Shown: in pieces, positions 3,327 to 48,073 of the stretch
How positions within the stretch are numbered: position 1 is the stretch's first letter
Layout: every line of letters starts with the position of its first letter
Assembly (NCBI GenBank): GCA_963971425.1
Contig: OZ020514.1
Location: forward strand, 41,887,158 to 41,951,157
Direction: 5' to 3'
DNA: 64,000 bases
Source: Bryoerythrophyllum caledonicum
Taxonomy: Eukaryota > Streptophyta > Bryopsida > Pottiales > Pottiaceae
Notes under the pieces: model-generated
Told to the model about the DNA's origin: nothing
Database searches by the model: none
Seen by the model: the letters and a program-made list of their open reading frames with translations, nothing else
Translations under genes and position numbers: made by a program

Positions 3327-3353
3327 ATTGTCAGATTTTGGTTTTCATGTTTG

Positions 3354-3670: not shown

Positions 3671-3851
3671 CAAAACACTCATCGAATTTTTCTGAATCGT
3701 ATATTAATCCCTTGTAATATGATATGCAATTTAGGGTTATTGTATATGGTATGCAAAATTTTCACGATAGATAGAATGTAGATCTATAGTACAATATTGA
3801 CACATGAAGGTAATAGAAGTTGTACATTGGTTCTGAAGTGCACCTGAAGAT

Positions 3852-4275
3852 CATACAATCCTCATGGGGATCGTAAGATCCTACCATTGTCATGAGGATG
3901 GTAGGATCTTACAATCCCCATGAGGATTGTAAGATCATACGATCCCTCAAGGGGGTTGTTAGATCCTACGATCCCATTCTGGATCGTAAGATCTTACGAT
4001 CCCATTCAGGATCGTTAGATTTTACGATCCCGTTTAGAATCGTAAGATCTTACGGACCCCTTGAGGGATCATATGATCTTTTGCAATCCCTCAAGTCTGC
4101 TTGAACCAAAGGTCCCCTCGATGATAGTAAGATCCTACGATCCCTTTCACAGTGTACTCTAGTTATCACAACTTCTTCTGTATCCATTGTAGAATCCCAC
4201 CGTAAGATCTTACGATCCCCCTAAGGTTTGTATGAACTAACCATACCTTTTTGGATGGTAGGATCTTACGATCCT
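3852..4275. repeat. Cluster of GGATCGTAAGATCTTACGATCC-type palindromes
   Basis: About ten copies and half-copies of a near-perfect palindrome built on GGATCGTA(A/G)GATC and its complement lie within 420 bp, e.g. near 3868-3886, 3940-3960, 3981-4003 and 4005-4030. Spacing is irregular (about 20-40 bp) and the intervening text varies, so this is not a simple satellite. The same motif recurs across E1 and I did not see it elsewhere in the window. It lies upstream of gene A, where a regulatory or protein-binding role would make sense. Confidence 0.8.
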
Positions 4276-4529
4276 CGGTTTGATGATTGCCCGTGATTTG
4301 GAAGGAAACCGTTGACACTTGAGTTTCTTTTATGAGTACTAAATATATGCATTGGTATGGTCAGGGAAAACATCATCGAACTTGAAGACGTTCCAGGGTG
4401 TATGGCTTAGTCATTGACAAAGTAGGTTTGGTCCCTGCACTAAACGAATCGGTCAAGGATCGGGGAATCATTATATCGAATTTTAATCTCGACGCTTGAA
4501 GGATTGTCCAAGGCTAGAAGGAGCTGTAG

Positions 4530-7500
4530 GCGAATCGAGATTTGTACAGTAGAGACGGACAAAAATCAGCTCCGCCTGCACCTTCTAAGAAGAAGCGGTT
4601 GTCTTCACTTCTTGCGGTGGAGGGGCCGCCAAAGAAGAAGTCACAGAGGAAGAAGTTCGACCCCAAGGTGGACGAACTAACACTAGCCAAGGCAGTGGGG
4701 ATGACAAGCAAGACCGTGGCAAGGAAAACCACAAAAGAGCTGTAGCTTGTGAGGACTCTGTACGAAAGAGAGTTCTTGAAACTCCATATTTTTGGTAAAA
4801 AGCCAATGAAGGTGTCCCCGCAGGACCCCGCTGATCTGGTAGTCGACATTGACTGCCTTCACCGAGCTCCTGCCAATACTGTCGTTTATCGACCATTGGA
4901 TAAGAAGCGAGTTTTACAGCTCATTGACCAGAAGCGCACGATGCCATTTCAGGCATCACTGCAACATCTGTAGGTGATGCCAGTGAAGGGTAATTATCCA
5001 GTCCGGAAAGAAGATTTCAAAGACATGCCGCACGATGCATACGAGTTTTTCAAGGAGCAACCAACATTGAAGGACATCGGCCCAAACACACACTATGTGG
5101 TTATAGGCGAGCAACATTGCGTGGCTGCGCACAGAGTCCTCATTGGGGAGGGTAGTCTCTCGGAAGAAGATGAGAGAGATGCCAAGAGCTTCATCGTAAC
5201 AATCGTCTGGCATGATCCCAAGGACTGGAACTTGATGTTATACTACTCAAGGGTCCTCAACCAAGATCCTGTTGGCGTTAGATCAGAGGGCAACTTTCTA
5301 ACCCTGCTGGGTCTTGCGCGTAAGAGCTGGGTATCAGCCGGTAGTCCACCTCCATCCAAGAATGGATTGGCACACTTCAATGAGTTCAAGGTGAGTCACT
5401 GAAACATTATCCATCACGTTAATGTTTGAGTTACCGATTCATATACAAGGTATGGACGGAAAGTAGGATCTTACGATCCCAACTTAAATAACCACATGGT
5501 TGTCAGGATCGTAGGATCCTACTATCTCCAAATTTCTTTGTTTAACTTCTGACTCCCCATTTCCTTGTAGGCCTGGTCTGATAAACTTCCGGCATTGTTT
5601 TCCAACTTGGATTCAAAGATCGTTGAAGACAGCAACACAGGAACTCCAAAATATCCACTGCTATTTGTTTTGGAGCCTATTTTCCAGATTTGGTTACAGA
5701 TCGAGGAGAGCTCGGTACTTGGACTTCTTCCCAATGCATTCGGGGTAACTTCGAGCTTTATCTCAGGTATTGACGAGGACTCTGCAAATGACGTCGAGGA
5801 CAACAAGGATAGGTCGAGGAAGGAGCGTTTGAAGCAGAAGCAATACCTGGCGAGGGCTCTAAAGGAGAACGACTTGATGCCACTTTATTTCATGTGGGAT
5901 AGTGACATCGAGAAGATGGCCAAGTTGGAGATGGCGAAGAAAGTCTTGGTAAAGTCGACAAAGTCGGCGAAGAAGGCACCCATCCTTCAAGGCCTCAAGA
6001 ACGCGTGTCAGACTGAGAAGAAGCATAGACTCATCAAGAATGAGTTCATGCACTACTTCTTTAAGAAGCCCCTGAGGTGTAAGACATTGAAGGAAGCCTC
6101 GTATTCTGAGGATGATTATCTTAAGGCTGGAGTTGAGTACAAGGTCACCGAAGCCACCATCAAAACGTAGTTTGAGAAGGCTATTAAGGACCCTACTCGA
6201 GAGCGCTTCTTCTTGAAGCGAGGATATGCCTTAGCCCTCTCAAACAAGGAGGATGACTTTCCAACTATTCTGAAGATGCTCTTTGATCACTAGAAGGCCA
6301 TCAAGTAGAATCGAGTTGACAGCGCTCCAACCTCATCCGGATCGTTGCTTTCAGCAAAATATAAATCCACTTGGATGAACAAGAAATCTGGAGACCTGGC
6401 AAAGATTCTACAGTTGGGCAATGACCAGATGCTGCAATGGACAAAGAAGGACGCAATGGTGGTTATGGTGTACTGCTTTGTCAATCGCAAAGAGAAAGGA
6501 AAACCTGATTTTTCAATCATGGAACAAGTTTTGCGAACTTTGCAGGCCATGGAGCAAAAGGATGATAACCAGTTCAGGAGGGTCCATGTGTATTTATCAC
6601 AGATTGGGCTGGAATGGTGGAGGTTGCCAATGTTGTATCTGAGAGGGGCACGGTCGCTACACAAACGCTACCCTGGTTTCACACCCCCACTTTATATATT
6701 ACCTAGGGGACAAAGGGCTTTGTGAGTCCTTCATCTCCTGAACCGACGTTGCCCTTGTACTTCAACTTTGTGTAAGGGAACGACTTGAGTTCGGCTAAAG
6801 TAGTGTGCTTTTGATCAGCTTTTGGGAATGAGATGCCGTTCTAGACAGTGATATCTGCAGTAGATTTTGAGGATGCTTCCAAACAATGGGCTCAACATTC
6901 TTATGCTAATTTCAATATCCACACGGTTAGCAAGTTGCTTGGCACATTGGGGGCTCCAAACAATGTTATTGTCAACATCGGTGGGGGTCCTTTGATTACC
7001 TGGATTGGCATGGTAAGATGACCGTAGGATCCTACCATCTCTTTACCTCATCCCTCAGTTCATTCAAGTCCTCTCTTCAACACTATCTTTACATCATATG
7101 AATTTGTTTTCTGTCAACTAATATAGCCTACTATTCTGTGTTGCAGACTTAAAGAGCACAAGTCATCGAAGTCGTCTTCTCTAGGGATGAAGTGACAAGA
7201 GCCGATGAGACAGCGAACGATATATGAGCGACTCGGACGCTGGCAATAGCGGTACCTGCCATGGCGGACTTAACTATGAGCGTGAGGAAGAAAAAGAAGA
7301 TCGCAAGAGGCAAGAAGAAGGTCATACCCTTATCCAGCTCCAAGAGTAACACCTCCAGCGACTCGGAAAAGGCCCCCTCCGAGAAGGGCACTGAAGTGGA
7401 GGAGGAGGAGATCGAAGAGCCGGATCAACCTTTGGACGACAGGCGCAAAGGCAAGTCCAAGACTCATCGAAGATTGCCGTTGGATAACCAAGAGCAGATC

Positions 7501-7557
7501 AACTTGACTCCTCTCTCTTCTACACAACCTTGTGCCCATGAGGCGACCATTGTATGA
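4530..7557 (+). pseudogene. E1 gene A: ParB/sulfiredoxin-like domain protein, broken
   Basis: It begins with a lysine-rich leader (KKKRLSS, PPKKKSQRKK), possibly a nuclear signal. Next comes VVYRPLDKKRVLQLID, then at about 5104-5140 VVIGEQHCVAAHRVL. This resembles the G-E-x-x-R-x-A box of ParB/Srx-fold proteins, which in ParB binds CTP. Later exons give an unrecognised region (5573-7014) and a charged linker (7148-7557) with KKKKKIARGKKK and acidic runs. Introns fit GT-AG: about 5391-5572 and 7015-7147, the second ending in TTGCAG. In-frame stops at 4743, 4971, 6168, 6291 and 6306 are all TAG. E2 gene A aligns across both the ParB-like box and the charged linker. No ATG opens the first frame, so the start is uncertain. 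Confidence 0.55.
5459..5525. repeat. E1 palindromes inside a gene A intron
   Basis: AGGATCTTACGATCC and AGGATCGTAGGATCCTACTAT lie within the probable first intron. Another copy (CCGTAGGATCCTACCATC) sits at about 7022-7039 at the start of a later intron, just after its GT donor. One more (GATTGTAAGATCGTACTATC) sits near 7873. Confidence 0.75.
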
Positions 7558-8049
7558 TACACACGCTAAATTTTATCTCTGTCAACGGACAAACTGTTTC
7601 TCGGACTATTGTATACAACAAGAACCATGTGAACTGATCAGCAATGTACTGTGGTTAATTTTTTGTTTGCATATTCGTTGTATTCATCATCATATCCCAA
7701 CTCCATGCAAGGAACTACGGAAGTTCATCATCGGCATCTGCGTACTTCATCTTCGGAGCCGCCGGTATGAATAACATTGCTCTACCTGTAGTTTATACAA
7801 CTTGGAATATATGTATCGATGGATCCATTTTACGCAATATAGTCATCAGTTACAACTCGATGAGTGCTTTAGGATTGTAAGATCGTACTATCCCTGCTCG
7901 TCTTTCCTTGTAGAGATTTATTCTTACCTCGTTCTGATTGTTGTTGTTATGCATAGATGCTTCGGTGTACAAAGCACTTTGTCCTTCACCCCCTTTCATC
8001 CATCTTGATCTTCAATTTTTCATTAGTAGTTCCCGACTAGGACAACAAC

Positions 8050-9956
8050 TTGACTGACCTTATTTCATGGCCGCAGCATCTCCAAATTGCTCATGACGAT
8101 CATTTGCCGTCTACTTCAACAGCGGCGGAGCATGTCTACGCTCACGGCGATTCACCTATGCATGATATCGACCATGTCAATGCCAGCACAATTTATGAAG
8201 AGGAAGATAGTAGCCTTCAGGCTCTAGTTAACAACTTGCCCAATGAGTGCCATGAGGACCTGAGTTGTCGAGAAGGTGAACTTCTGGAGGTGAGTTCTAT
8301 TCCAGATCAGGAGAGGACAAGAAGAGAAGAAGAGGCGTCGTTGCTCGCGGAGGAAGAGTTACTTGCTCCTCGAACTAAAATGACCGTTAGGAATGAACCA
8401 CCTTTAAAGCCGAGAAGATCGGACGTGCTCATCCCCCGTCGTTTGGACCTACACCGATGGAGTTCGAACCATCTTCTCATCCTTCCTCCAGCCAAGACAT
8501 GGAGACTACAACGGATCCTGAGCAACACTTTGCCACGAATACACTTGCTAGGTTACAGGACATTGATTCGAGTGTTTCACCCCCAGTAAGTAAAGCGTCG
8601 TTCGATAGGGAGCTTACCATAGGCATATTCAAGGAGGCTAGTCAATCGCTACAGGCCTTCAGCCCTCCTAGGAATGTTTTGAATGCACCTATTGTTGAGG
8701 ACTACTTGGATGACCCTTTGAATTTCACTCAAGAAATTCAGCCAACAACCTTTAGGATCGTCCAAGACCTGATGTTGAGGTTGATGCTACTTAAAAGGGT
8801 CCTCCATCCGCACAACATACTGATGCAGGACCCTTTGCCGAAGGTATGTGGCTATTAAATTCTACCATCTTGTTGTAATTTGTGTATCTTTTATGTCCTA
8901 TGTTCACACTATTATCCTTAGGGGATATCAGGATCGGCGATCCTAACGGCCATGGTAGGATCTTACAATCCCTTTAGAGAGGGTAGGATCTTACATTCCC
9001 ATTGGGATGGTAGGATCCTAGTACCCTCGAGCATTGTTGTCTCGAATGCTGGTAATGTATAAGCAATTTGAATGGCTTATGGGTCGTGTATTCTTCACTA
9101 ATGACCTTTTTTTTTGGGCAGGGGAGATGTCGGGGACTGCTCAACGTCGTGAAAAGGTTGCACATAAGGGCTCTGGTTCCTCTAGAGAAGGTATGATTCT
9201 AGACAATTCTACTGCTTATTATTAGTTTTCTGTATTGGAGACTTATTCTTGCAACGTTGGTTTTCTGCAGGAAAACTCAGTGCACCCGCCATTAAATGAG
9301 CCCCTAGATCAGCAAAGGTAAGGCAACCTCGGTACACTGTTGTGCTAGACTTGAATGGATTTCTGATTCACAGATCGTACGATAAGGGGCAAAAAATTGT
9401 CGCTAGACCTGAGTGTGCAAATTTTCTGAAGGTGCTGACAAATAAGGCTACTCTCGTGGTATGGAGTTGCGCCATGAGGAAAAATGTCAATAGCATGTTA
9501 CAGGTGGCTTTGGGTAGTTCTACTGTAAAGCTAGATGACCTAACAGTTATGTCACAATCTGATATTACGGAGTCGAGCTTTCCGAGATCGGGGAACAACG
9601 TTGAGAAGAAGTACATGCTTAAGGACCTCAAAAACATTAGGAAATATGTTGACCACGTAGACCTCAGTCTGACATTGCTCATTGACGACAACCCAGAGAA
9701 GAACATCCTCAACAATGAGTTCAGTGCGATTCATCCTCAAACGTGGACAGGTGACCTGAAAGACAAGTTCCTCATGAACACTATGCTTCCATGGCTCGAG
9801 AATATGTTTTTCTCAAATCTCTATGTGGCCGAATATGTCCATAACCATCCCCTTCCCAGATGTCCGGTTCTCGGAGAATTTAGGTCCACTACGTTGGCTC
9901 AGAACATTGTAATTGGGTGTTCTCGAAAATGGAATTCCAAAGTCGGGGCATTTCAA
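8050..9956 (+). pseudogene. E1 gene B: FCP1/NIF-like HAD phosphatase domain protein
   Basis: The first exon (8050-8850) is acidic and serine-rich and ends at a GTATGT donor. Short exons follow near 9120-9200 and 9271-9320. At 9321-9956 is an FCP1 homology (NIF) domain: VVLDLNGFLIHR holds motif I (nucleophile Asp codon 9348-9350), WSCAMRKNV a middle motif, and LLIDDNPEKN (9681-9710) motif III. Plant members of this family often have DLNG rather than the DLDET of true FCP1/SCP, so phosphatase activity is uncertain because the second Asp is Asn. This domain is open over about 205 codons and may be intact. E2 gene B (19.0-20.0 kb) and E2' (21.4-21.7 kb) carry the same domain. The palindrome block 8924-9023 lies in an intron. 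Confidence 0.65.
8924..9023. repeat. E1 palindromes inside a gene B intron
   Basis: Four half- or full copies (ATGGTAGGATCTTACAATCC, GGTAGGATCTTACATTCC, ATGGTAGGATCCTAGTACCC and a decayed one) lie between the exon ending at about 8846 and the exon starting near 9120. Confidence 0.75.
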
Positions 9957-10117
9957 TGACTACTCACTCGTATCAGTGATGTGTATATTTTGTATATTTT
10001 GTTTCAATATAAACTTGTAGGATGTACCTCTACTTTATCAGACACTCTTTAGTAGTGAGGCCATCATCTTATTTTGAATATTATAAATTGCAATATCTCC
10101 CATGTATTATCCTTAGG

Positions 10118-10220
10118 GTGGTAGGATCCTACGACCCTCATGGATAGAGTAGTTAAGGATCTTGTATGGATGATTTGTTTGTAGTATGGATGGCAGTGTG
10201 ATCGGATCCTACGATCCATG
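10118..10220. repeat. E1 palindromes between the two HAD domains
   Basis: GGTAGGATCCTACGACCC near 10,120 and GATCGGATCCTACGATCC near 10,200 flank a 60-bp spacer between the exon ending at 9956 and the second HAD-like exon. Confidence 0.7.
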
Positions 10221-10273
10221 ATGTTGTTTATAACTTCTATCTTTCTCTATGATCATAGCGACGCGACAACTCG

Positions 10274-10777
10274 ACAAAAGTTATCGTGTTGTCTGTCAAC
10301 GGATTGCTTTGTTTCGAGCATTACGATAACTGCTCCCCACAACGCTTCAATCGGAACAACATCATTGTTCGGCCTGGTCTCCTAGAGTTCTTCAGTATAC
10401 TTCTGAGGTCCTTCCAAGTTGGAATATGGTCATCAATGGTGCCCGCGCGCCTAAAGAAGGTCCTTGAAGTCCTCCTCCCCGAAGACATAAGGTCAAGACT
10501 TCTTTTTTGTTATGGACAAAACAAGTGTTCAAGGCCACAATTGTATCCTTTCTGTGACAAGGTTCTTCAGAGACTCGCAACAGACCGGAAGACGAAGCAG
10601 TTCTGTCTTCCTGACAAAATGTTGATAGTTAATGACCATCCAATGCGTCATGTCTTCAACGGAGACCGCGCTTGCTACTTTCCAAAGTCATGGCATGGTG
10701 AAATGACCTTACCCAACACATCCAATGTTATACCTAATATTGGCACAACATTGCTTCCGTTCATCCTTCCGCTGTAA
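10274..10777 (+). pseudogene. Second FCP1/NIF-like HAD domain of E1, nucleophile lost
   Basis: A second FCP1-type domain, open over about 165 codons: VIVLSVNGLLCF at motif I, RPGLLEFF and GIWSSMVPARL in the middle, IVNDHP in the place of motif III, and PKSWHGE near the end. Motif I reads SVNG (Ser codon 10,292-10,294) where the first domain has DLNG, so the catalytic Asp is missing and any surviving product would be a pseudo-phosphatase. It may be a later exon of gene B, giving a two-domain protein, or a separate tandem copy. Its stop is followed by readable but interrupted text to about 10,880. Confidence 0.6.
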
Positions 10778-10861
10778 TCTTACGCCTGGATGAAGGAGTA
10801 TCTGCGGGGGCACCCGATGGATGTAAAGTTAAATCGTAGATTGCTTGAACCATGGCACTTT

Positions 10862-11287
10862 GAGCGAGTGTTACGAAGTATGTAGTCGGTTCCCTACATT
10901 GAGTTCTGTTGGCGTTGGCTTTCATCCAGTTTATTCTATGAATATATTTTTTTGATTTTCATTACCCCCATTTTCCACGCCTATTTGGTTGCTTATTTTT
11001 GTGACTTGTACTACATTGATTGCCCTACATGTATTGTTAAACCAAAGAATCTTCCTATGTACGCTATGTATCTTGAGCGAGTATTACAAAGTATATAGCC
11101 GCTTCTCTACATTCAGTTCTTCAGCGACTTACTTTTATTCAGTGTACTCTATGAGTGAAGTTGTCAGTGGTTCTTACCTCCATTCTCCGCGCCTAATTGA
11201 ATGCTTCTTTGTTTGATGTGTACTACATTGATTGCCCTACATGTGTCGTTAGATCGTAGGATCCCACTATGTAAGCTATGTATCTTG
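10862..11287 (+). repeat. Tandem duplication, about 212-bp unit, two copies
   Basis: GAGCGAGTGTTACGAAGTAT at 10,862 recurs as GAGCGAGTATTACAAAGTAT at 11,075. TGTACTACATTGATTGCCCT recurs about 211 bases apart (11,008 and 11,219). The second copy carries an E1-type AGATCGTAGGATCC motif near 11,251. Confidence 0.75.
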
Positions 11288-11497
11288 GATCGCCAGATCC
11301 CACTACATTGTTTGATGCCTTTTTATACTTCATCCCTAAGTGAATGTTGCAGTTACCCCTAATCTATAGGCTCAATCCTATATTTATTGAAATATTCCTG
11401 ATGCCAATGGTAATATCGTATGATCTCATGATCTTGCTTCCTATATCAAGAACTGATCCAAAGTCCGGAATTCATCTTAAAGTCCACATTTACTTAA

Positions 11498-12172
11498 ATG
11501 TCACATCCATTTGAAACCGTCGATTCAAAGGCAAATCGAGCGGCTTCGAGCAACTCTATCCTTTTAGCTTCATACATTTCGGCGGATAATACTGTACAAA
11601 TCTTAGCCTTTCGGAAGAATAGAGCAAGACTTGCTTGGGCTTTGATGTGCACCATGGCCGAAGTCCACAAGGCAAATGTCATTCACAATGACAGCGCTCC
11701 CACAAACGTGCTTCTCCACTTTCCTCCAGAGAAACCAAGGTCATTGGCGTTTGTGATTGTGGAATTGCGAGCCAAATATCGCACAAAGAGCCATCAAAAT
11801 ATGGATTCTGGACTGAGACGGAGCTTGACAATCAACGCGGTAGACGACATTGGGTAGCTCCAGAGTTGTTTTACAAATTCGGCCCACAAGATTCGAAAAC
11901 GGCATTGAATGTGATGTAGCGGCGACACCAATACACCCAGCTCGCCGATTCGTACTCCGTTGGATGGATGGCTAGAGCGATTTGGGAGAAAGAATTTGAC
12001 TCAGCATTCTTCAAATCAGTCGTCAACTACGCAGCTTTTCAAGTGAAGATTGAGAAGTAATTAGAGCGAGATCCAATCAAACGTCCAACACTCTCCAAAG
12101 TGGTCGACGAGCTAATGGCTAAACCATTCAACTTTGAAGTTCCGGACGTTTGCTTCCGCTATGAGATATAGC
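11498..12172 (+). pseudogene. K1: decayed protein-kinase-like gene
   Basis: VIHNDSAPTNVLLHF matches a kinase catalytic loop (HxDxxxxN form HND...N), a following frame reads CDCGIAS where DFG is expected, and RRHWVAPELFYKFGPQDS fits the APE segment. The downstream text (ADSYSVGWMARAIWEKEF, RDPIKRPTLSKVVDEL) fits the C-lobe and aligns with K2 at 27.2-28.8 kb, showing the two are one family. The N-lobe is not readable. Frame changes and in-frame stops (TAG after NVM, TAA after KIEK) break it. It lies just past E1 with no visible partner. No GACGTC array, which accompanies K2, is present here. Confidence 0.6.
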
Positions 12173-12340
12173 AATTTTGACTTAGCGTATTGATAGTGAA
12201 GGCAAATTGTTGATCATTTTGCAATATGTACTAGCATTGTGATGTGACGGTGTGTTTTGCCCATCTCGTGATAAATAAAAGATTAACATTTTTCATACGC
12301 ATTGCGACATGAAGCTCATGCATGTTAAGCAGTGAGAGAG
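12173..12340. other. Short spacer, nothing recognised
   Basis: AT-rich sequence between the kinase remnant and the GC-rich minisatellite. No gene or repeat seen. Confidence 0.5.
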
Positions 12341-12690
12341 CGTGCGCGACCCCTGAATTCAATACTAGTACACGCGTGCCCCCAGACGCCACGTGCCCGG
12401 CCCAACCCCCTCCACGAACGCACCCAACCCTCAGCTTGCGCGCGCGACCTTGGTCGGACTCGCCAGCCCCTCCAAGTATGCGCTTGGCCATTCACCGCGT
12501 GCGCTCGGCCCCTTGCGGTACGTGCCCGATCCCTCCCTGTATGCGCCCGACTTATTACTGTACGCGCCCAGTCCTACCCTATATGCGCCCGGCCCCTTAA
12601 GTACGCGCATGACCCATCTCTGTACGCGCCTGCCCCCTTCACATGCCCGCCCCCGTGTCTGCACGCGCGCGACCTTGTTGTCGACGTGTC
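12340..12690. repeat. GC-rich minisatellite of GTACGCGCC / TATGCGCCC units
   Basis: Repeated TGCGCCCGGCCCC, GTACGCGCCCAG and similar phrases recur every 23-27 bp, very rich in CG dinucleotides compared with both flanks. Long open frames on both strands here follow from the periodic, stop-poor composition and are not genes. Confidence 0.75.
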
Positions 12691-12726
12691 AGCCACGTAG
12701 TCGCCTTTGTGGTAGTGGGTAAATTG

Positions 12727-12832
12727 ATTTACCTCGAGTCATGGTCAAACCAGGGTTGACTTTTATCGGACGGACAACAACCTCTACCGGACGGATAGCC
12801 AGACGGACGGACGGACGGCCGAACAACCTTGT
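12727..12832 (+). mobile_element. Orphan end of the E3/MULE family
   Basis: GGTCAAACCAGGGTTGAC (12,743-12,760) followed by TTTTATCGGACGGACAA matches, read inward, the right end of E3 (complement of about 26,545-26,586: AGTCAACCCTGTGTTGAC then TATCGGACGGGCAA). A GACG microsatellite follows. The rest of the element is absent; the Copia remnant begins immediately after. Confidence 0.55.
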
Positions 12833-15800
12833 AAGTAACATGACGCTTGGCAAATACGAGTCATCTATGCCATTTTGTGAAGGGTGTGGGCAAGGCAAGC
12901 AGCATAGGGCACTTTTTCTAAAGGAAAGAGGGACTTGTGCCACAATGCTTTTGGAGATTGTACATTCGGATGTTTGTGGCCCGATGAGGACCCCATCTAT
13001 TGGCAGTGCAAGGAACTTTGTAACCTTCATTGATGACTTTTCAAGGAAGGTGTGATTGTACACATTGAAGACGAAGGGGGAGTGCCTTGAGAAGTTCAAA
13101 GAGTTTAAAACGCTTGCCGAGAAGCAATTGGAGCACAAGATCAAGGTGTTCGGTCCAACAATGGTGGAGAGTCCGTCTCAAAGGCATTTCAAGGCTAATT
13201 AAAGCATCATGGCATCATCAGACAACCATCAATATCGTACACGCCTGAGCAAAACGGAGTGGCCGAGCAAGCAAATCGCACCATTTTGGAGATGACAACA
13301 AGCATAATCCATGCTCAACGGCTCAAGCTTGCTTTTTGGACGGAAGCGGTGACAAATGCGGTGTTCATTTACAATCAATGTCCAAAAGGGCAGTTGTCAC
13401 TATCACACCAGAAGACTCAAGAAGCTTGGAGCGGCTGCAAGCCATCCATTGCACACATGTGTGTGTTTTGGATGGATTGCACTTGTGATGGTGCCGAATG
13501 CAAAGAGGGATAAACTCGATGCAAAAAGCACAAAGTGTTTGTTTCTTGGCTATTGCAAGGGCACCAAGGTATATCGCCTCATATGTATTAAGACGAAGAA
13601 GACCATTCAGAGTCGTGATGTGGTGTTTGTTGAAGATAGCTCAAGTGTTGGAAATGGTTTGGAGATGAGTCCAAGTGTGAGTAGTAAGACGCCTTTGTTG
13701 TTTTGGGAAGACGAATCTTTCAACCAAGTACCACAGGTGATAGTAATCTCAAGAAGGAGAAGATAGTGGATGGTAAAGAAGAAGGTGCAACCGTGGGGCC
13801 TTCAACAACAGATACATCAATACCAAGTGGTGATGAGGGTAGTGGGAGCACTCAAGAGCCACAATATCCAAGATGGGAGTCGCAGCCGCCTAGAGAGTGG
13901 TTGATGAACCACATCTTTCCGCAACATGAAGAAGAGGGGGCCAATGTGACCACTCTCGAGAATGCATTGAACGTGTATGAAGCCATGCGATCCAAGGATG
14001 CAAGCAAGTGGGAGGCGGCCATGCAAGTGGAGTATGACTCACTCATGGCAAATGAAACTTGGAAGATGGCTCCCCTTCCAAGGGCTCAGAAAAGTGTCGG
14101 ATGCAAGTGGGTGTTTTGCACAAAGAAGGATGTTTGGAGTCTAGTTGTGCACCACAAGGCACGGTTGGTGGCAAAGGGATACTCTTAAGATGAAGGAGTG
14201 GACTTTCTTGAGACCTTTGCTCCCATTGCAAAGTTCAACAACATTTGATGTAACCTTTTGCTTCAAGCCGGGTTGGATTTGATGATCCATCAAATGGATG
14301 TGAAGACCGCATTTTTGAAAGGCGACTTGGATGAGGACATCTACATGAGCCAACGACAAGGTTTTGAGAAGAGAGACTTTGAGCATCTTGTGTCCATGCT
14401 CAAGAAGTTGTTGTACGGACGCAAGTAATCACCAAGGGCTTGGTACTAACGGATCGACTCATTTTTCATCAAAGAGGGTTTTATAAGAAGTAAAACGGAT
14501 CACTCATTGTGCATCAAGCAAATGGGTGAGTACTTGTTGATAGTGCTCATCTATGTAAATGACTTGATCACCTTGGCTAGCCTTTTGGCCAAATTTACGT
14601 GGTTCAAAGGCAAGCTGGATGCGGAGTTTGACATGATTGATCTTGGAGAGTTGAAGTATTGTCTTCGTGTAGAATTTTTGAGGGACCGCAAGGCACACAC
14701 CATCATTGTGAGCCAAAAGAAGTACATTGAGGAGGTGCTCAAGGGATTCAACATGGAAGAGTGCAAGCCTATTGAAACACCACTTGATATGAATGTCGAG
14801 TTGTTGAAGATCTTAGAGGAAGAGTTTCAAGCCATTCAAGGTGAGATGGAAGTCGTGCCATACAAGAGTGGAGTTGGATCATTAACATATGCCATGGTGG
14901 CCACACAAACTAACCTTTCTTTTGCCGTGAGCATGGTAAGCCCATTCATGTTTAGGGTTGGTCTATGTCATTGGAGTGTGGTGAAGCGCATCATGCGGTA
15001 CTTGCAAGGTACCAAGGACAACAATTGTGGGTTGGCACAAAGGACATGCTTTGAGGGGCTATTGCGATGCAAATTGGGCTGGAGATATGAGCGTTGTACA
15101 ACAACTGGGTATGTGTTTTTTGTTGGAGGTGGTGCCATCTCTTAGAATTGCAAGAGGCAACCCACAATTGCCTTGTCCACAACGGAGACGGAGTACATGG
15201 CAACTAGCCAAGGTACAAAGGAGGCCATTTGGCTTTGCAAGCTCTTTGCGGATGTGGGGTTTGTTCAAGGAGCAACAACCATTGTGTGTGACAACCAAGG
15301 GTGTATCGCCCTTGAAAAGAACCCCACACACGGCTTCACATGAAGTATATTAATATGCAATATCACTTCATTTGCGAGAAGTTGAAAAGCGGCAAGATTA
15401 GCATGAAGTATTGCTCAACGAAAGACATGGTGGCCAATGTAATGACAAAGGTACTTGCAAGGGAGCGACATCAAAGGTTGGCTTTGGCAATGGGATTGCA
15501 AGATGGAAACTACTTGCAAAGTGAGAGTGTTGGAGTTAAAAGTTGCTCATAGTTATTACAGCATTGTCCATAGTTATTGGGGTAGATTTAGAAGGAAAAG
15601 TAAATGAGGAGAAAAGGTAGAGAGGTGAAAGGAACTTGAGAGGTACACGTATGGCGCAAGGTTAAAGAGGTAAGACCAACCTACGTGTTAAAGAGGTAAG
15701 ACCAACCTACGTGCATGTAATAAGCAAGGACAAGTGGGTGGTCATGAGTTGGCATAGAGGGACTTTCAAGTTGCTTGAGAAGCCACTTGTAAGATACTGT

Positions 15801-15907
15801 AGGCGCAACTAAGTGTAGTATAAGTAAAGGCCTTTGAAAGACGGCAACATCTCACTCAAAACATTGTTTATACTACCTTGTGTGTCTTTCACTTGCTTGT
15901 ACAACCA
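12833..15907 (+). mobile_element. Ty1/Copia retrotransposon fossil, 5'-truncated
   Basis: Parts in Copia order: the end of the pre-integrase zinc region (CEGCGQGKQH), integrase core (IVHSDVCGPM, FVTFIDDFSR, a following AEQANRTILEMT), reverse transcriptase (KWVFCTKKD, ARLVAKGYS, LIVLIYVNDLI) and RNase H near the end, then a purine-rich tract and a 3' LTR. The gag region and 5' LTR are missing. It is clearly broken, with roughly ten interruptions across about 3 kb, so it is an old, inactive copy. It lies between a MULE end and element E2. Confidence 0.9.
15528..15907 (+). repeat. 3' LTR of the Copia fossil
   Basis: It begins TGTTGGAGTTAAAAG directly after the purine-rich tract AAAGTGAGAG, as in many Copia LTRs, and runs to about ACAACCA at 15,907, where text resembling E2 gene A begins. 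It contains a 26-bp tandem duplication (GTTAAAGAGGTAAGACCAAC..., 15,661-15,713). The right border is approximate because no 5' LTR is available to compare. Confidence 0.65.
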
Positions 15908-16613
15908 TCTCTCTACTTCTCTAAACATCAATAGCTTTGTCTATGAAGACAGAGAGAAGAAGGTCAAGCTTGACGTTATGAGGCTCTTTAATGCACCCCC
16001 GGAGTAGACGATCCATGCATACAAACCTAGGGGAATGGAGGAATTGATGCATTATTACATTGAAATGCCCAACAAGTTGCAGCAACCGACTCTCTCTCAT
16101 GACCAAGCTTTATGAGATGCCACCAAAGATTGAGGACATTGGTGATTGTGACTTTTGTATCATCAATAGCCAACATAGCATTGCAACATCAAAGGCGATG
16201 ATAAACAACAACATCATTGAGCAAATCACGAAGCACTTCCAAACCTGGTAGTATTTCATTGTCTGGACGCGTGATTCAGACAAGCTAAGAAAGATTTTTG
16301 CGTACAATAATCGCGTAAATCACTAAATCCGGTTCAAATCAACATGGGCAACTAATGTCCTCAATACTCGGGCTTTGGGGATTCACGTTGTGAGACCAAT
16401 GCCAAAGCACTCCGCGGCGGACGTTAGAGGGTCACACAAATTAGGGCAAAGAACAACATTGGACTCTGTAAATGACCAGAAATACGAGGTAAGATTTTTA
16501 AATCAAGCTCAGGCACTTTTGCTCAATTGTTGATAACGTGCAAGAGTACTCCATTTTTGTAATTTTTTAAATATAGATTTGAACCATTTTCATTGAATTT
16601 TCTCTGGTTGCAC

Positions 16614-16634
16614 TTTAGCTCAACCTGAGCTAAA
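16614..16634. repeat. E2 palindrome TTTAGCTCAACCTGAGCTAAA-type
   Basis: A 21-bp palindrome with 7-base arms (TTTAGCT / AGCTAAA) in a probable intron of gene A. Further copies in E2 sit at 17,608-17,628, 18,853-18,873 and 20,622-20,642, with a decayed one at 22,082-22,102 in E2'. All are outside recognised exons. Confidence 0.8.
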
Positions 16635-17607
16635 TTTCAGTAATCGAGTTTTCATTGATTTGATACTTAGCATACTATTATGATCAACTTGTTTAACCGC
16701 TTTTTATTATTTGCAGTCATTTTTTAGCGCTATTTGTGAACGGTTTGCCATAATGGCGTTGCAAATAGCCAAGCAGATCTCAAAAAAGTGGGAAAGGCTA
16801 AGGGGCTCTTGCAAACGAACGAGGTGAAAATCATCACCGCATCGGAGGATACCTTTAAGCTTTGGCAGGAGGTTATCTCTTTGGTGGTAAACGACAACTT
16901 CATTGACGTTGATGGCTAGTTCAAGGACGCGAAGTCTTGGGCCCTGTAGAAGAAAGGTATGCTGTCGGGTGGGTTCTTCAAGATTCTCGGCAACATGACT
17001 GAGGCTGATGACGCAAAAATGTGTAGACACATTCTCAATCAATTAGAGCCAATGTGGAAACTGCCTTAATCCAAAGAGGTTGTGAAGCAACCACTATGTG
17101 TGCTACACCGCTTGGGACAGGGTTAATTGGAGGAAGAAAAAAGAGGTTGCTCAAATAGAGCTTCACATCATCAAGACAGAGTTGGGTTCATTCAACAATG
17201 TTTGAGCATACAGTCGGTCCAACTACATGAATTTTAAGAAGGTTTACAACGTCAGCAAGGCTTCAAAGCATGTCCTCTTGGATTGGGGTCCATCGGGTTT
17301 GTACTAACCAACGCAAAGCAAACCCAGCTTTGCAACTGCAAATGTGAGGATCTTTCTTCGTATGCAAAGAAATTCTTTAAAGTCCTCCTCCAAAATTGGT
17401 TGCAATTTGTTCCACCATATGGGGCCTTGCACTTTTGTATGTATAAGGCGCAGACAAATTTGCTCAGGACTTGGCTCTCTGATTCTTGGCCCAATCAAGG
17501 CTATAACGCAAAGCTCGGGATCATCGACTTCCGGAAGATTCTTGGCTTCTCTAGGAAGGCAATGTCGTCTTTGTGAGCACCTTCTTCTACTATTCGTAGA
17601 GTAGTAC

Positions 17608-17628
17608 TTTAGCTTGCCTCGAGCTAAA
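17608..17628. repeat. E2 palindrome, second copy
   Basis: TTTAGCTTGCCTCGAGCTAA plus one A, just downstream of an exon ending near 17,575, in the intron before the 17,788 exon. Confidence 0.78.
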
Positions 17629-18852
17629 GTATCAGTTGAGTCATGTATGCTATTTGTATAGCAGTCAACAATCGCATTGTATGCCATACATTTCCAATTG
17701 TTGTTTGTGTGGTATTTGTATGCCTTTATCCTTGCTTTAGCTCGATTCAACGTATGGTCTGACTCGTCTAAATTCATTCGTATGTAAATGTTGGATCTGG
17801 AGGCATTTTGCCTCTTGCACAATTCAGATGAAACGGATTTCAACAAAGCCGTAGAAATTGCATTGATGATAGACAAGGCCAATTTTGTCCTCGATGGATA
17901 TCACTTCAATGAGGAGATTTTTTCGCATCTTGACAAGGTCGTTGCAAAGAGGAAGGGAAAATCGAGTGTTGACCTTGTCGATGAAGAGGAAGATTTGGAT
18001 TGAAGCTCCATGGGTGTGGGCCTAAGCTCTAATATGGTCAATGTGGACGACGAACCTTTTGACGGCTTTGATGACACCACCCTGCCGCAGCTTGAGAGTG
18101 GCACTTATTTCGAAGCTCGTGACACAATTGATATCTCACGGCAGCGGTTGTCATCTCAGAAACTAGACTTCCCGAAGTCGGATTAGCTAGATATAATAGA
18201 CAGTCCTCATTCAACTTCCACCTTGGGAAGGTCATCTGCTCGGCCTCAGTCCAAGGGGAGGAAAGTCGCCAATGGAAGCGGCTGCTCTCCGTCGGCTTCG
18301 GCAAGCATCGCTTAGGATGTGGGTTGGTTAATCATACTCGAGAAGAAGCTTGAAGAGGAGGTCATCCAGTGGAGATTGATGGAGCAACAATTAGCGGAGC
18401 GTGACCAAGAGTTGAGAAGCCTATAGGAGAGGCGTGACAAAGAGGTGAAGAGGGACCAAGAGCACAGACATGCCGACATGAAGCTCATGCTAGAGAGATT
18501 TATAGCAGCTATGTTGCTTGTTGTTGCCACAACACTACCCACGATAAATGCTGCAAACTTTGAGCCTCCCTTCTCAGCAGAAGAAAGGAGCGGGAGTCAG
18601 TTCCACGGTTCTCTTCTGCCGTCGTCGGTTATTTCCTTGCCCTTCTCCATGGGGCCTCAATGAATTCATGTTCCCCCATCCACATTGAACCCCCTCTAAA
18701 AGTTGCCCGCTTGGATGTTGTCTATCAAAGATGTCCCAAGCTCATTGTCTGATTAATGCGACGTAGTTCCGATTGTACATAGACAAATTTTTTTGTAAAT
18801 ATCCAATTTTGTACATTCATTTTTTGTAAGTATTATGGTGCTTGATGAGCAC

Positions 18853-18873
18853 TTTAGCTTGCCTTGAGCTAAA
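18853..18873. repeat. E2 palindrome, third copy, between genes A and B
   Basis: TTTAGCTTGCCTTGAGCTAA plus one A. The surrounding 130 bp (about 18,740-18,880) aligns with the complement of 22,080-22,210 in E2', so the site is a conserved part of the element and not a later insertion. Confidence 0.8.
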
Positions 18874-18959
18874 ATGTTTGACACTTGACAACTCTGCCAT
18901 GTATCACACTCCTATGTGTTCACCAGCTTACAGTTTGAAATTGTTTTGAATTTTTCAGA

Positions 18960-20045
18960 TTTAAATTTCATTGATGACGGGATCGCTCACCTAGTCATAA
19001 AAAAATATCGTCGAAACCGTAGTCCTAGTCATTGAAGAGGTTGTCCAAACTTTGATCGTGCACATAAAAGAGGTCATTCATGATTTCGCTGTCCCAAAGA
19101 CACCTCTTCTTGTCTCGGAGTCGGGCCTCTAAATGGTTAGAAGACACTTAGATCACCTTGGCAAGATGCAGGGTTCTTTGGAATCAATGGGGGTCGGAGA
19201 CGAATTCCTGCAAGAAGATGAAGTTCTTGAGGTATTTTTCTAACACTTTTTACACTCCACCTCCCCTCAACGCCCCCACTACCGTTTTGCCATTTTTGTT
19301 CTACGTTTTGTTAAACCGTTGTTTTTAATGAATCAGTAGTAATATTGTTCGTTCTCTTGGCATTTTCTAACCAGGTTTGCAAGCATTAATAAGTGGTGCC
19401 ACTAATGTAAAAGAAATACCATCAATCCTATCAGAATTCCAAGGCAGGTAATAGAATGATGTCCTCGACCTCAATGGGATTCTATGCACGTATGAGCCTC
19501 CATGGTAAGCCAATGGATTCATTAACCCTGACGTGTCCAAACATTTGGCTACGCTCCCGACTGAAGTAAGCCCTAAACTAGTTTGAGTGCGCCTAGGGTG
19601 TGCTTAATTCCTCACAAAATTGTTTAAGTTTGCCATCATTACGATCTGGAGTTTGATGATGACATCTACAACCTTGCAGATATGCAAATATTTTTTTCAG
19701 CATTATCCTATGTACCCTCTAAGGATCTTTTGTCAAAAGAATTGCGATAGGGCTCCCGAGCGTAGAGTCGGTACCAAAACAATCTACACTCAGAAAGACG
19801 TCTTCTTGAAGACGTTATCAAACCATCTCTTCAATAGGTTGGGTCATGAATATACTCCGGCGAATACTCTTGTCATTGACAATAGCTTGATTAAGCCCAT
19901 GCTCAATTTGCTGGAAAACGTCCTTTTACTTCTATCATGGTCGCACAATTATGATGGCGCAAGAGAGGATTCGGTACAACTGGAGAGATTGTTGCCATAT
20001 CGCTCTGACCTTCAATTGTTTAAAGGAGGGCTAGTGCAATATTGA
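18960..20045 (+). pseudogene. E2 gene B: FCP1/NIF-like HAD protein, broken
   Basis: The first exon gives VIEEVVQTLIVHIKEVIHDF and DEFLQEDEVLE, ending at a GTATTT donor as in E1. After a 150-bp intron, VLDLNGILCTY (Asp codon 19,467-19,469) is motif I of an FCP1-like domain. NTLVIDNSLIKPMLN (about 19,870-19,915) fits the region of motif III, and VRLERLLPY-like text ends the domain at 20,045. Stops and frame changes occur between motif I and 19,620. The homologous minus-strand E2' segment preserves VVLDLNEILC and the following 300 bases. Readable text with frame changes continues to about 20,550 (PLPQWPCTVLGCPHLNPENC). Confidence 0.55.
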
Positions 20046-20560
20046 GCTGAACATCCCTCGAATCAGGAGATGTTCTATAATGATCTAAAGATTTGTTGTG
20101 CGGATTGGAATTCTATTGCTGATGGAATGTCCAATTGTTTTGAATGATTTGAATTTTCATCTATAGTTCTAAGGTATGTAGGCGTCACTTTGATTGAAAA
20201 TTCTACAAGACTATGATTGTCGAGCGTTAGTGGATACCTTGCTAGATCCGGAGGAGTACGCTCTATCTCTTCAAAGTAAAAGGCTTTTATTGCACTCTAT
20301 AGCAATTGCGCAGTCACCATGGAATATTTGACAATGGCATTGGACGACGGAGTTGTTGAAAGCCATGTTGGTCAAGAGCCAATTCATGATAGGGTCAACT
20401 CTCCTTTGCCACAGTGGCCTTGTACAGTTCTAGGGTGTCCGCATTTGAATCCGGAGAATTGTACTCTTACATAGCGTATTCTTTATGACACTTTGATGAA
20501 TGCTCCCTACTCCCGCTCGTTGACGGTGCATTTTATGCTCACCTCCTAGTTATTGCACTA

Positions 20561-21420
20561 TTGAGTCATTTTTTGCCTAGGCACTTTTGGTTCGATGTTG
20601 AGTTGCATTGCACTCATGTAATTTAGCTTCATTCAAGCTAATTTTTATTTGGATGGATGGTAAATGTGCTCTATGAATGTACCCTTGAGCATTTTAACTC
20701 CATTCAACCTAAAGTGCACTTGGGGGGATCTTAATGTTATAGACTTTATGTGTGTTGTATAGGGGTATTTATCCTAAAAGTGAGTTTGTTTCGATTGTAT
20801 GTGGCACCCGTTGTATAGGAGCCCTATGCGAAATGTCTCCGCCCTTGCATCCTCTTGGAAAATACTGTTGGAAACATATTGTCTCCTTTAGATCCTACCC
20901 GCCGCCACTCGCTGCCCAAATTCAACGTTGAAAGGGTGCGTATTTGGGGGTTGCAGAGTCTTCTAGACAGTCCATTAATGCAAGAGAATAGAGCAACGTG
21001 GACTCGTCAACGTTGAAGGGCTTTTTTGAAGATGTGTACAGAGGCTTATTGAGTATTTCCCAAGACGATTTTATTAGTGATAATACCATTGTGTTTTGCC
21101 TAGGGGTAAATGAATGTTGTCCGTGATTTTCTTTCATGAAGTTTTAAATAAATTTTGGATTTATGGAATATTACCGTTACCAATTTTTTGGACGTTTGGC
21201 TAATTTGGTCCTTCCATAGAATAAAATATAGTATTCTAGGTACATTGTCTTTATGCTTTGCACCTACAAATGTCTGTGAAAATTGATATTTCAAAGAGCA
21301 TATATCTTCAAAGTCGTGGAAATCTTCCAATATAATGAACATTGTGTTTATATGTTGTAGCATCCTATTGCAATTCTTTGGACCTATGATCTTGATAGGG
21401 TACGTTGGACATTGCTGAAA
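20561..21420. other. Spacer between E2 and E2', no gene
   Basis: It contains the palindrome at 20,622-20,642 and a related decayed pair near 20,690-20,720. TCTTCCAATATAATGAACAT at about 21,328-21,347 resembles the DUF7869/MITE terminal repeat, so a worn piece of that family may end here. No coding region is convincing. Confidence 0.45.
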
Positions 21421-21423
21421 AAG

Positions 21424-22605
21424 TTATTCACATATCTGCAAGGTTGTTGATGCCAATATCAAACTCCACATCGTGGTGGTGGCAAACTTAGACAACTTTG
21501 TTAGGAATCCAGGATACCCTAGCCGCACTTTGACTAATTTAGGCCATACTTCACTTGATAGCGTAGCCGAGTGTCTACAATAGTCAGGGTTTCTGAGTTC
21601 TTTGGCTTGCCACACACTCACACATGCATAGAATTTCATTGAGGTCGAGCACAACATTCAACCACTTGTAAGAGGAATTTGATGGGACTCTAGGTATTTC
21701 TTCTACATTACAGGCACCACTTATTGATGGCTTGCAAACCAGGTTAGAAAATGCCAGGAGATAAAAAATATCACTATAGATTGTATAGCAATGTTTTTTC
21801 AACAAAACGTAGAACGGAAGACGTAAAAAGTGAGGGAGAGTGTGGAACATAAGACGTATTGGGAAGAATACCTCAAGGACTTCATTGTCTTGGAGGAATT
21901 CGTCTCAGGACCTCATTGATCTCAATGACCCCTATATGTTGCCAAGGTCATGCAAGTGTCGTCCAACAATTTGGAGGCATTGCTCTCAAACAAGAATTTA
22001 TAAACTCAAAAAAACTTCAAATTATCAAGTGATGTACACAAAGGACACTAATGCAAGGCAGAGTCATCAAAAGTTGAGCAATTTTGCTCAGGCCAAACTA
22101 AGGTGCTCAGCAAGCACTGTAATACTTATAAAAAAATATTTGTACAAAATTGGACATTTACAAAATGTTTTGCCTGTATATAAATTGGAACTACATGACA
22201 CTATATCACACTAACTTAACGATGGGCCTGGAACATCACAGATAGATAATGGGCAGGCAGACAATTTTGAAGTAGAAGAGATGGAATCCTATGTGGAAAG
22301 GTGAATAGGAAGTGATGGAGGCTCCATCAAGTAGGGCAAGGAATCAACAAACAACTACACAAAAGAACCATGGGATTGATTCTGCTCCCTTCTCCCGTTG
22401 ATAGTGGAGGTTGGAAGATCACAGCATTTGCCACATGCGGTATCGTGGCAAGCACAGTTGACTTAGTCACCATGAATCTCTCTAGCATGAGTATCATGTT
22501 GGCATGTCTCTGCTCTTGGTTCCCCTTCATCTCCGTGTCCCGCCTTTCTTGCCGCCTCTTCAACTCTTGGTTAGGCTTTAAACAAATGCATAATTGAATG
22601 ATCAT
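21424..22605 (-). pseudogene. E2': inverted partial copy of E2 (end of gene A, start of gene B)
   Basis: On the minus strand, 22,605-22,330 reads RRQERRDTEMKGNQEQRHAN and MILMLERFM, matching the E2 coiled-coil tail. 22,210-22,080 matches the E2 intergenic palindrome region. 21,733-21,425 matches E2 19,378-19,685 closely at nucleotide level, including VVLDLNEILC and the shared CTCGACCTCAATG and GAGTTTGATATTGGCATCAA stretches. The copy is truncated at both ends and frame-broken. It lies tail-to-tail with E2, so the two form an imperfect inverted repeat about 0.9 kb apart. Confidence 0.7.
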
Positions 22606-45506: not shown

Positions 45507-45911
45507 TTTAGCTCAACTGAAGCTAAACCGTTAATCTATTCAAAGGTCTCATTTTAGCTCGAGTGGAGCTAAACTGTGAGCCATGAACAATCTAATAATT
45601 TAGCTTGACTCAGCTCAATGATCAACTTTGAATGGGATCATGACATTTACTCTCGTCTCAATCTTTGCTGTCATTATTTTTCTGTAGCAGATCGCCACGC
45701 CCTAGTCTTAATAAATTGTCATGTTCGATGTTGCTTATATAGTTTAGCTCAATTCAAGCTAAATTTTGAACCGCAAAATCAGATTGAGGGTATTATTTAA
45801 GACATGGTAAACTACCCTAGTGAAACTAAAGTTCATATTAAAACCAAAATAGTTGGGATTTTATTTCAAACCATTTTAAAATGACTATAGTTTAGCTCAA
45901 CTTGAGCTAAA
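45507..45911. repeat. Cluster of 21-bp TTTAGCTC...GAGCTAAA palindromes upstream of DUF7869 copy 2
   Basis: Four clear copies, each exactly 21 bp with TTTAGCT and AGCTAAA arms and a variable 7-base centre: 45,507-45,527, 45,553-45,573, 45,743-45,763 and 45,891-45,911, plus a decayed one near 45,600. The conserved arms and length with a changing centre suggest selection on or spread of the site itself. The same palindrome is scattered through E2. Confidence 0.85.
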
Positions 45912-48000: not shown

Positions 48001-48073
48001 CCATCTGGATGCATCTAGATGCTCAATGAGTAAGTATAAATTGTCATGTCATGACAACAACTTGCTTCCAAAG

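What the first reader, a model, noticed from the sequence alone, without database searches (positions are those of the whole stretch)
3852..22605. Related elements E1 and E2 pair a ParB-like protein gene with element-specific palindromes
E1 and E2 share two collinear genes, one with a ParB/sulfiredoxin-like box (GEQHCVAAH at about 5104 in E1, NSQHSIATS at about 16,165 in E2) and one with an FCP1/HAD-like domain. Their intron and intergenic palindromes differ completely: GGATCGTAGGATCC-type in E1, TTTAGCTC...GAGCTAAA-type in E2. Bacterial ParB binds palindromic parS sites and is a CTP-dependent clamp. I infer that gene A may recognise its own element's palindromes and that protein and site have changed together between families. 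I know of no described plant element with this layout.
Basis: partly seen in the sequence, partly recalled or inferred. Interest (0 to 1): 0.88.

Follow-up and report, generated by a model that had tools for sequence, protein, structure and literature searches.

The report
Transposons with private palindrome arrays
Two decayed, related mobile elements in this genome carry completely different short palindromes in their non-coding gaps, most likely docking sites for a protein the elements once made, but the proposed link to the bacterial DNA-clamp protein ParB found no support.

Summary
The observation mostly holds; the ParB reading found no support. E1 and E2 share two collinear blocks: the first exon of gene A (z=7.5) and an FCP1-like (NIF) domain (z=8.7). 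The rest of gene A is not detectably related. Each element has its own 21-22 bp palindrome in introns and intergenic gaps. F1, GGATnGTARGA|TCYTACnATCC, has 21 sites at <=5 mismatches, all in E1; 0 of 10 merged sites in the E1 body lie in ORF-based coding sequence. F1 and F2 both occur in the first intron of gene A, at an equivalent place. F1 arms vary independently (157 symmetric matches, 156.7 by permutation), which argues for half-sites of a dimeric protein and against hairpins.

Pairing with a ParB gene fails: gene A scores no better than its own shuffles against a ParB_N profile. F2 is as frequent outside E2 (5 sites, beside a DUF7869 gene) as inside (5). A third family, F3, lies wholly in a 20-kb element with long inverted repeats where no gene A was detected.

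Best reading: docking arrays for an element-encoded protein, working like VANC/VANDAL motifs; which gene encodes the binder is open. Selfish palindromes are the main rival.

The parts
3840..4275 (.). F1 palindromes upstream of gene A: seven sites 28-29 bp apart from 3868 to 4037, then sites at 4122, 4197, 4253
4590..5390 (+). E1 gene A, first exon as read from the frame (in-frame stops); carries the GEQHCVAAH box
5391..5570 (+). E1 gene A intron 1 (GT...AG, phase 0) with F1 sites at 5458 and 5506
5571..7012 (+). E1 gene A exon 2, several stops and a probable frame change
7013..7146 (+). E1 gene A intron 2 with F1 site at 7019
7872..7893 (.). F1 site in a non-coding gap
8950..9026 (.). three F1 sites between gene A and the HAD gene
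9300..9956 (+). E1 FCP1/NIF-like domain 1; motif reads VLDLNG
   Evidence: Pfam NIF E=2.4e-16; sequence
10116..10217 (.). two F1 sites downstream of HAD domain 1
10259..10774 (+). E1 FCP1/NIF-like domain 2; motif reads VLSVNG, nucleophile Asp absent
   Evidence: Pfam NIF E=9.3e-7; sequence
11243..11272 (.). last two (overlapping, degenerate) F1 matches
15945..16488 (+). E2 gene A exon 1 in two frames, with NSQHSIATS box; the part before 16102 was placed by MAFFT only
16489..16716 (+). E2 gene A intron 1 (GT...AG, phase 0, equivalent place) with F2 site at 16614
17608..17628 (.). F2 site in a non-coding gap
18853..18873 (.). F2 site between E2 gene A and HAD gene
19461..20115 (+). E2 FCP1/NIF-like domain, broken; motif VLDLNG
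   Evidence: (E=0.0015 for 19608-20042)
20622..20713 (.). two F2 sites (20622, 20693) downstream of the E2 HAD gene
21364..22577 (-). partial inverted second E2-type copy
45507..45911 (.). four F2 sites outside E2, upstream of the second DUF7869-type copy (46,994-49,107); a fifth at 49,463 is downstream of it

Best explanation
E1 and E2 are decayed copies of related multi-gene mobile elements. Their palindromes are docking sites for a dimeric DNA-binding protein made by the element family, placed in nearly every non-coding gap (promoter side, introns, between and after genes). Binding along the whole element would mark it as its own, probably to keep its genes expressed against host silencing, as VANC proteins do in VANDAL elements. 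When a lineage changed its binder, its sites changed too, so E1 and E2 now carry unrelated palindromes in equivalent places. Shown: homology of two gene blocks, site enrichment, absence of sites from ORF-based coding sequence, independent half-sites of F1, the equivalent intron. Inferred: mobility of E1 and E2, binding, the dimer, anti-silencing, and that any particular gene (gene A or another) encodes the binder.
For: F1: 21 sites in E1, 0 elsewhere, 0 in each of 20 shuffles; 0 of 10 merged sites in the E1 body fall in ORF-based coding sequence although that covers 67.5% of it (P=1.3e-5 if sites are independent); the best match inside any of six exons has 7 mismatches. F1 half-sites share a profile (core GTARGA nearly fixed, position 5 free), and the two arms of a site vary independently (157 of 209 symmetric against 156.7, P=0.51; 19 sites). 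Dispersed F1 cores recur with unrelated flanks (9 sites: core 0.76, 15-bp flanks 0.32 against 0.30 at random). Intron 1 of gene A is phase 0 at an equivalent place in E1 and E2 and holds F1 in one, F2 in the other. A third family shows the same habit: 17 of 17 F3 sites lie inside one 20.2-kb element with ~630-bp inverted repeats. Precedent: VANC motif arrays in introns, intergenic and terminal DNA that diverge between related elements (PMC5735166).
Against: F2 sites occur as often beside a DUF7869 copy as in E2 (5 and 5), so a site family is not tied to the gene A element. No gene A relative was detected in the F3 element (E1 and E2 exon 1, six frames, 5 to 35 of 40 shuffles as high; tblastn, which however also missed the E1-E2 pair). 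No DNA-binding domain was recognised in gene A. VANC motifs are 9 bp and arrayed in one direction, these are 21-22 bp and nearly palindromic. 5-bp flanks of F2 sites are more alike than random (0.52 and 0.58 against about 0.33), so for F2 a longer copied unit is possible. No intact copy or host genome was available, so joint change of site and protein rests on one pair.
Confidence: 0.4

Rival explanations
1. The palindromes are themselves selfish: short units that copy or jump into tolerated non-coding DNA, like the short palindromic repeats of Volvox organelles or MITE-like units, with no binding function.
For: Presence in introns and gaps with unrelated F1 flanks is what insertion plus purging from exons gives; F2 is beside two different genes, its 5-bp flanks are partly shared, and an F2-like palindrome sits inside a 159-bp MITE-like insertion at 48,076-48,234. 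Volvox precedent: PMC2670323, passages incl. abstract read.
Against: F1 and F3 stay inside one element each in this window, which a freely moving unit need not do; F1 arms are not kept complementary, and F3 keeps an asymmetric A/G at position 8 (2 of 17 symmetric, P=0.004, one of 11 positions tested).
Confidence: 0.25
2. The sites are bound by the transposase (subterminal-type motifs spread inward) for synapsis or self-repression, and gene A is unrelated cargo.
For: F2 lies upstream of a DUF7869 copy and F3 arrays lie on both sides of a DUF659 (hAT-type) gene; transposases that bind repeated short motifs are well known (En/Spm, Ac; recalled).
Against: Sites are not concentrated at two ends but lie in gaps and introns; no transposase was recognised among the E1 and E2 pieces scanned; no shared inverted 12-mers between the E1 and E2 flanks tried. 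That DUF7869 is a transposase is not shown (AlphaFold pLDDT 37.4).
Confidence: 0.2
3. Gene A is a ParB/sulfiredoxin-fold CTP clamp that loads at the palindromes as at parS sites.
For: VVIGEQHCVAA aligns in register with ParB box II (lvAGERRwRAa) and was the segment hhalign reported; ParB-like domains are reported in algal transposons (PMC12477816).
Against: hhalign probability 0.4%, against up to 7.3% for 50 column-shuffled controls; profile score below many of its own shuffles; no Pfam hit for exon 1; AlphaFold pLDDT 36.5; F3 arrays without a detected gene A.
Confidence: 0.07
4. The palindromes act as hairpins (RNA processing signals or cruciforms).
For: They are inverted repeats inside introns and other non-coding gaps.
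Against: No compensatory change between F1 arms; no Rfam family at gathering score in the window; arrays also upstream of genes.
Confidence: 0.04

Closest known systems
VANDAL21 / VANC21 (Arabidopsis elements with a sequence-specific anti-silencing protein; PMC5735166, PMC10398659)
   Same: Element-specific motif arrays in introns, intergenic and terminal non-coding DNA; related elements carry diverged motifs; arrays partly tandem; several element genes.
   Different: The VANC21 motif is 9 bp and arrayed in one direction; VANC has DUF1985, which none of the E1/E2 pieces scanned matched; binder here unknown; sites here are 21-22 bp palindromes.
ParB-like plus DNA methyltransferase accessory protein of Sola1-1_Ec32 (Ectocarpus) and the green/red algal relatives which that paper mentions (PMC12477816)
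   Same: A giant transposon with an accessory gene for which a self-binding role is proposed.
   Different: Gene A has no detectable ParB domain, and no methyltransferase domain was found in the pieces scanned.
Short palindromic repeats of Volvox carteri organelle genomes (PMC2670323)
   Same: Short palindromes in intergenic and intronic DNA.
   Different: Those are organelle hairpins with conserved loops spread over the genome; here F1 and F3 are each confined to one element in the window and F1 arms are not kept complementary.
Bacterial ParB-parS
   Same: Palindromic sites in small clusters; a one-box resemblance.
   Different: No profile support; site 21-22 bp against 16 bp for parS (recalled); no ParA-like partner was looked for beyond the Pfam scans.

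Membership tests
ParB/sulfiredoxin superfamily | ParB_N profile match | tested here: not met
   Pfam at E<=10: none for exon 1 of E1 or E2; own profiles from 71 loci (74 domains in the final one): E1 bits 0.8 and 0.5, E 40 and 49, behind shuffles of itself
ParB/sulfiredoxin superfamily | GERR/GCHR-type nucleotide box with basic residue (recalled) | tested here: inconclusive
   GEQH in E1, NSQH in E2; Arg replaced by His; G absent in E2
ParB/sulfiredoxin superfamily | Fold | tested here: inconclusive
   AlphaFold mean pLDDT 36.5, so no fold search was made
ParB/sulfiredoxin superfamily | CTP binding, sliding clamp | not testable with these tools
   needs protein
FCP1/NIF HAD phosphatases | NIF domain | tested here: met
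   E1 domain 1 E=2.4e-16 and domain 2 9.3e-7, over cut-off; E2 0.0015, under cut-off
FCP1/NIF HAD phosphatases | DxDx catalytic motif (recalled) | tested here: not met
   DLNG in E1 domain 1 and E2, SVNG in E1 domain 2
VANDAL/VANC-type anti-silencing | Element-specific motif arrays in non-coding DNA | tested here: inconclusive
   met for F1 (21 of 21 in E1; 0 of 10 in coding ORFs) and F3 (17 of 17 in E3); not for F2 (5 of 10 in E2)
VANDAL/VANC-type anti-silencing | VANC protein (DUF1985) | tested here: not met
   no such Pfam match in the E1 and E2 pieces scanned; not every ORF was scanned
VANDAL/VANC-type anti-silencing | Loss of methylation on binding | not testable with these tools
   needs plants and methylomes
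DNA transposon with terminal inverted repeats | TIRs for E1/E2 | tested here: inconclusive
   no shared inverted 12-mers between 3000-3845 and 11,260-12,700, or 15,300-16,000 and 20,500-23,000; shorter or lost ends not excluded; target duplications of E1/E2 not tested

The most novel reading that the evidence does not exclude
Giant plant-type elements carry a private DNA address: a 21-22 bp palindrome in nearly every non-coding gap, read by an element-encoded dimer related to the ParB/Srx fold that spreads along the element; binder and address are replaced together, giving several unrelated address systems side by side in one genome.
Probability: 0.08. Interest if true: 0.85.

Novelty: new variant of a known kind. 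Interest (0 to 1): 0.5.

Why it matters
How a mobile element tells its own DNA from the host's is a live question; VANC/VANDAL is the one worked-out plant case that I found. Three separate site families in 64 kb, with one in place of another in an equivalent intron, would give a natural series for studying how a DNA-binding protein and its sites change together, with a direct binding test. If instead the palindromes are selfish units, they would be a nuclear counterpart of the Volvox organelle repeats.

Tried and rejected
ParB: Pfam, phmmer and a pair-profile search of the PDB, own ParB_N profiles with shuffles, hhalign and AlphaFold gave no support. The hhalign positives (L028, L031, L033-L036) came from the same loci as the profile and so are partly circular.

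Relatives: none of gene A in IMG/VR or in the prokaryote genome contigs by the pattern-plus-tblastn search; exact F1, F3 and one F2 form gave 0 matches in IMG/VR. No eukaryotic collection and no host genome was available, so copies could not be compared; the host was not identified.

tblastn of E1 pieces at E<=1 missed the E1-E2 gene A and HAD pairs, so its silence about E3 says little; one search repeated the question with local alignment and shuffles, saw E1-E2 (0 of 40 shuffles as high) and not E3. In one search the E1 HAD domain against 44-50.2 kb gave 0 of 40 (z=3.2), one of 15 non-control comparisons (compare tblastn E=0.022); not followed up.

DUF7869 as transposase: AlphaFold pLDDT 37.4, not usable. 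Hairpin function: disfavoured by the arm test.

Papers: seven searches, of which I saw the 8-12 best rows each, showed no plant element that pairs a ParB-like gene with palindromes; this is limited to the open PMC library and those terms. One search was aimed at VANC. Read: passages of PMC5735166 and its section 8 (63), passages of PMC12477816 and PMC2670323, outline and abstract of PMC10398659.

Rows dropped: the half-site test used 19 of the 21 F1 sites (11243 and 11251, overlapping, left out) and 17 of 17 F3; the flank test used 17 of 21 F1 (also without 8978, 9005), 15 of 17 F3 (without 32965, 32987) and 8 of 10 F2 (without 20693, 49463). The coding test merged sites starting less than 15 bp apart (10 left in 4290-11,300) and used exons read from ORFs, not transcripts.


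Full report
What is there. The window holds nested and neighbouring mobile elements. From left to right: a DUF7869-type gene (1-2744; Pfam E=1.3e-29 for 1065-1610; extent by its second copy), E1, a Copia retrotransposon (RVT_2), E2, a partial inverted second E2-type copy (21,364-22,577), a 20.2-kb element with inverted repeats (E3), and a second DUF7869 copy (46,994-49,107). No host genome is held, so what follows rests on this one window plus public collections without eukaryotes.

Genes. E1 gene A exon 1 and E2 gene A exon 1 are homologous (BLASTP E=6e-5 for this pair; z=7.5 with 0 of 200 shuffles as high; 0 of 40 in a wider search). The FCP1-like (NIF) domains are homologous too (z=8.7). 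Order and orientation agree. The similarity is weak: tblastn at E<=1 listed neither pair. Other parts of gene A did not pass the shuffle test. Both copies are broken by stops and frame changes. The NIF motif reads DLNG in E1 domain 1 and in E2, and SVNG in E1 domain 2; compared with the DxDx motif as I recall it, phosphatase activity is doubtful.

Palindromes. F1 (22 bp) has 21 sites at up to 5 mismatches, all between 3868 and 11,251, and none in any of 20 dinucleotide-preserving shuffles of the whole window. With the free position masked, 24 sites lie within 3800-11,500 and none outside at up to 5 mismatches; five at 6 mismatches lie outside. In the E1 body 0 of 10 merged sites fall in ORF-based exons that make up 67.5% of it, and no exon of six holds a match better than 7 mismatches. 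By my reading of those coordinates, seven of eight non-coding stretches of E1 have at least one site (the short HAD intron has none). Upstream of gene A seven sites follow each other every 28-29 bp.

F2 (21 bp) has 10 sites at up to 2 mismatches: five in E2 (16,614 to 20,693) and five outside it (45,507 to 49,463), four of these upstream of the second DUF7869 copy. F3 (22 bp) has 17 sites, all inside E3 (23,350-43,590, inverted repeats of about 630 bp, 85.5% identical). Nine of 13 spacings within its four arrays are 31-32 bp. E3 has a DUF659 gene. No gene A relative was seen in E3: with E1 or E2 exon 1 against six frames, 5, 16, 34 and 35 of 40 shuffles scored as high, while the same test did see E1 against E2.

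What the sites look like. Over 19 F1 sites (38 half-sites) the core GTARGA is almost fixed, GGAT is well kept, and position 5 is free. Which variant one arm has does not predict the other arm: 157 of 209 symmetric matches against 156.7 in permutations (P=0.51). A hairpin kept by selection, or a palindrome copied by folding back, should show agreement. Half-sites read separately by two subunits need not. In F3 the arms even disagree at position 8 (2 of 17 symmetric, permutation mean 8.2, P=0.004, one of 11 positions tested), so F3 is slightly directional. Nine dispersed F1 sites have cores 76% alike with 15-bp flanks no more alike than random stretches (0.32 against 0.30), while the upstream array (0.55), F3 arrays (0.42) and F2 sites (0.38 and 0.43; 5-bp flanks 0.52 and 0.58 against about 0.33) have related flanks. 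So the clean picture of a bare recurring core holds for dispersed F1 only.

Equivalent place, different palindrome. Intron 1 of gene A follows exon 1 in phase 0 in both elements (E1 5391-5570, E2 16,489-16,716; GT and AG signals) and comes at the end of the aligned block; the last ten residues align poorly, so equivalence is to within a few codons. E1 has two F1 sites in it, E2 one F2 site. Sites also lie in both between gene A and the HAD gene, and after the HAD gene. This is the strongest hint that something re-supplies sites after a change of type.

ParB. The claim rests on one box. Pfam gave nothing for exon 1 at E<=10 and only chance-level matches for exon 2; the PDB gave nothing of note. 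I built ParB_N profiles from 71 bacterial loci (74 domains in the final one) and scored gene A with all filters off among 1083 targets (3 gene A pieces, 900 shuffles of them, 180 window ORFs): E1 came 60th of 801 and 71st of 816 scored, behind shuffles of itself; the E2 pieces were lower. hhalign aligned VVIGEQHCVAA with lvAGERRwRAa, in register, at 0.4% probability; 50 column-shuffled controls reached 7.3%. AlphaFold on three sequences gave pLDDT 36.5, so no fold search was made. A highly diverged ParB/Srx domain is not excluded, only unsupported.

How it most likely works. I read the palindromes as docking sites for an element-encoded dimer. The closest working model is VANC in VANDAL elements: VANC21 binds a 9-bp motif dense in non-coding regions (introns, intergenic, terminal) of its own family, motif arrays change by tandem repeat formation, and related VANC proteins act on different elements (PMC5735166); RNA-directed DNA methylation targets the same non-coding regions (PMC10398659, abstract). 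The anatomy here matches in site placement and in type change between relatives. It differs in site length and symmetry, and the binder is unknown: gene A, the DUF7869 gene or a lost gene. The sharing of F2 by E2 and a DUF7869 copy, and F3 without a detected gene A, speak against gene A as the general binder.

Main rival. Short selfish palindromes would also be found in introns and gaps with unrelated flanks, as in Volvox organelles (PMC2670323), and an F2-like palindrome lies in a 159-bp MITE-like insertion at 48,076-48,234. Confinement of F1 and F3 and the independence of F1 arms count against it. Comparing insertion places between copies in the host genome would decide.

Scores. I rate interest 0.5 and novelty as a new variant of a known kind.

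Noticed in passing
23350-43590: A 20.2-kb element (E3) bounded by inverted repeats of about 630 bp, 85.5% identical, with a DUF659 (hAT-type) gene and 17 of 17 F3 palindromes; target duplication not resolved (5-6 bp candidates).
   Followed up: partly
26687-26802, 29030-29176, 32872-33008, 36638-36747: F3 palindromes GGGGCGGRGACGTCYCCGCCCC in four arrays in E3; 9 of 13 spacings within arrays are 31-32 bp, about three helical turns.
   Followed up: partly
48076-48234: MITE-like 159-bp insertion with exact 23-bp inverted ends in the second DUF7869 copy; the first copy (about 1870) looks like the empty site; a possible relative near 3181-3324; F2-like palindrome at 48,126 with 3 mismatches.
   Followed up: partly
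11692-12057 and 27213-27767: Related protein-kinase-like fragments (48% over 62 aa; Pkinase E=3.8e-5 for the second, below cut-off), one right of E1 and one in E3.
   Followed up: no
46757-46903: Weak likeness of the E1 HAD domain to a stretch of the second DUF7869 gene's ORF (tblastn E=0.022; 0 of 40 shuffles for 44-50.2 kb); may be chance.
   Followed up: no
58234-59335: Further short repeated palindromes of other sequence (TACCTTAAA...TTTAAGGTA; GGGGTGCCGATGTCGGCACCCC), perhaps another site family.
   Followed up: no
10860-11287: Two tandem copies of about 215 bp, 76% alike, at the right side of E1.
   Followed up: no
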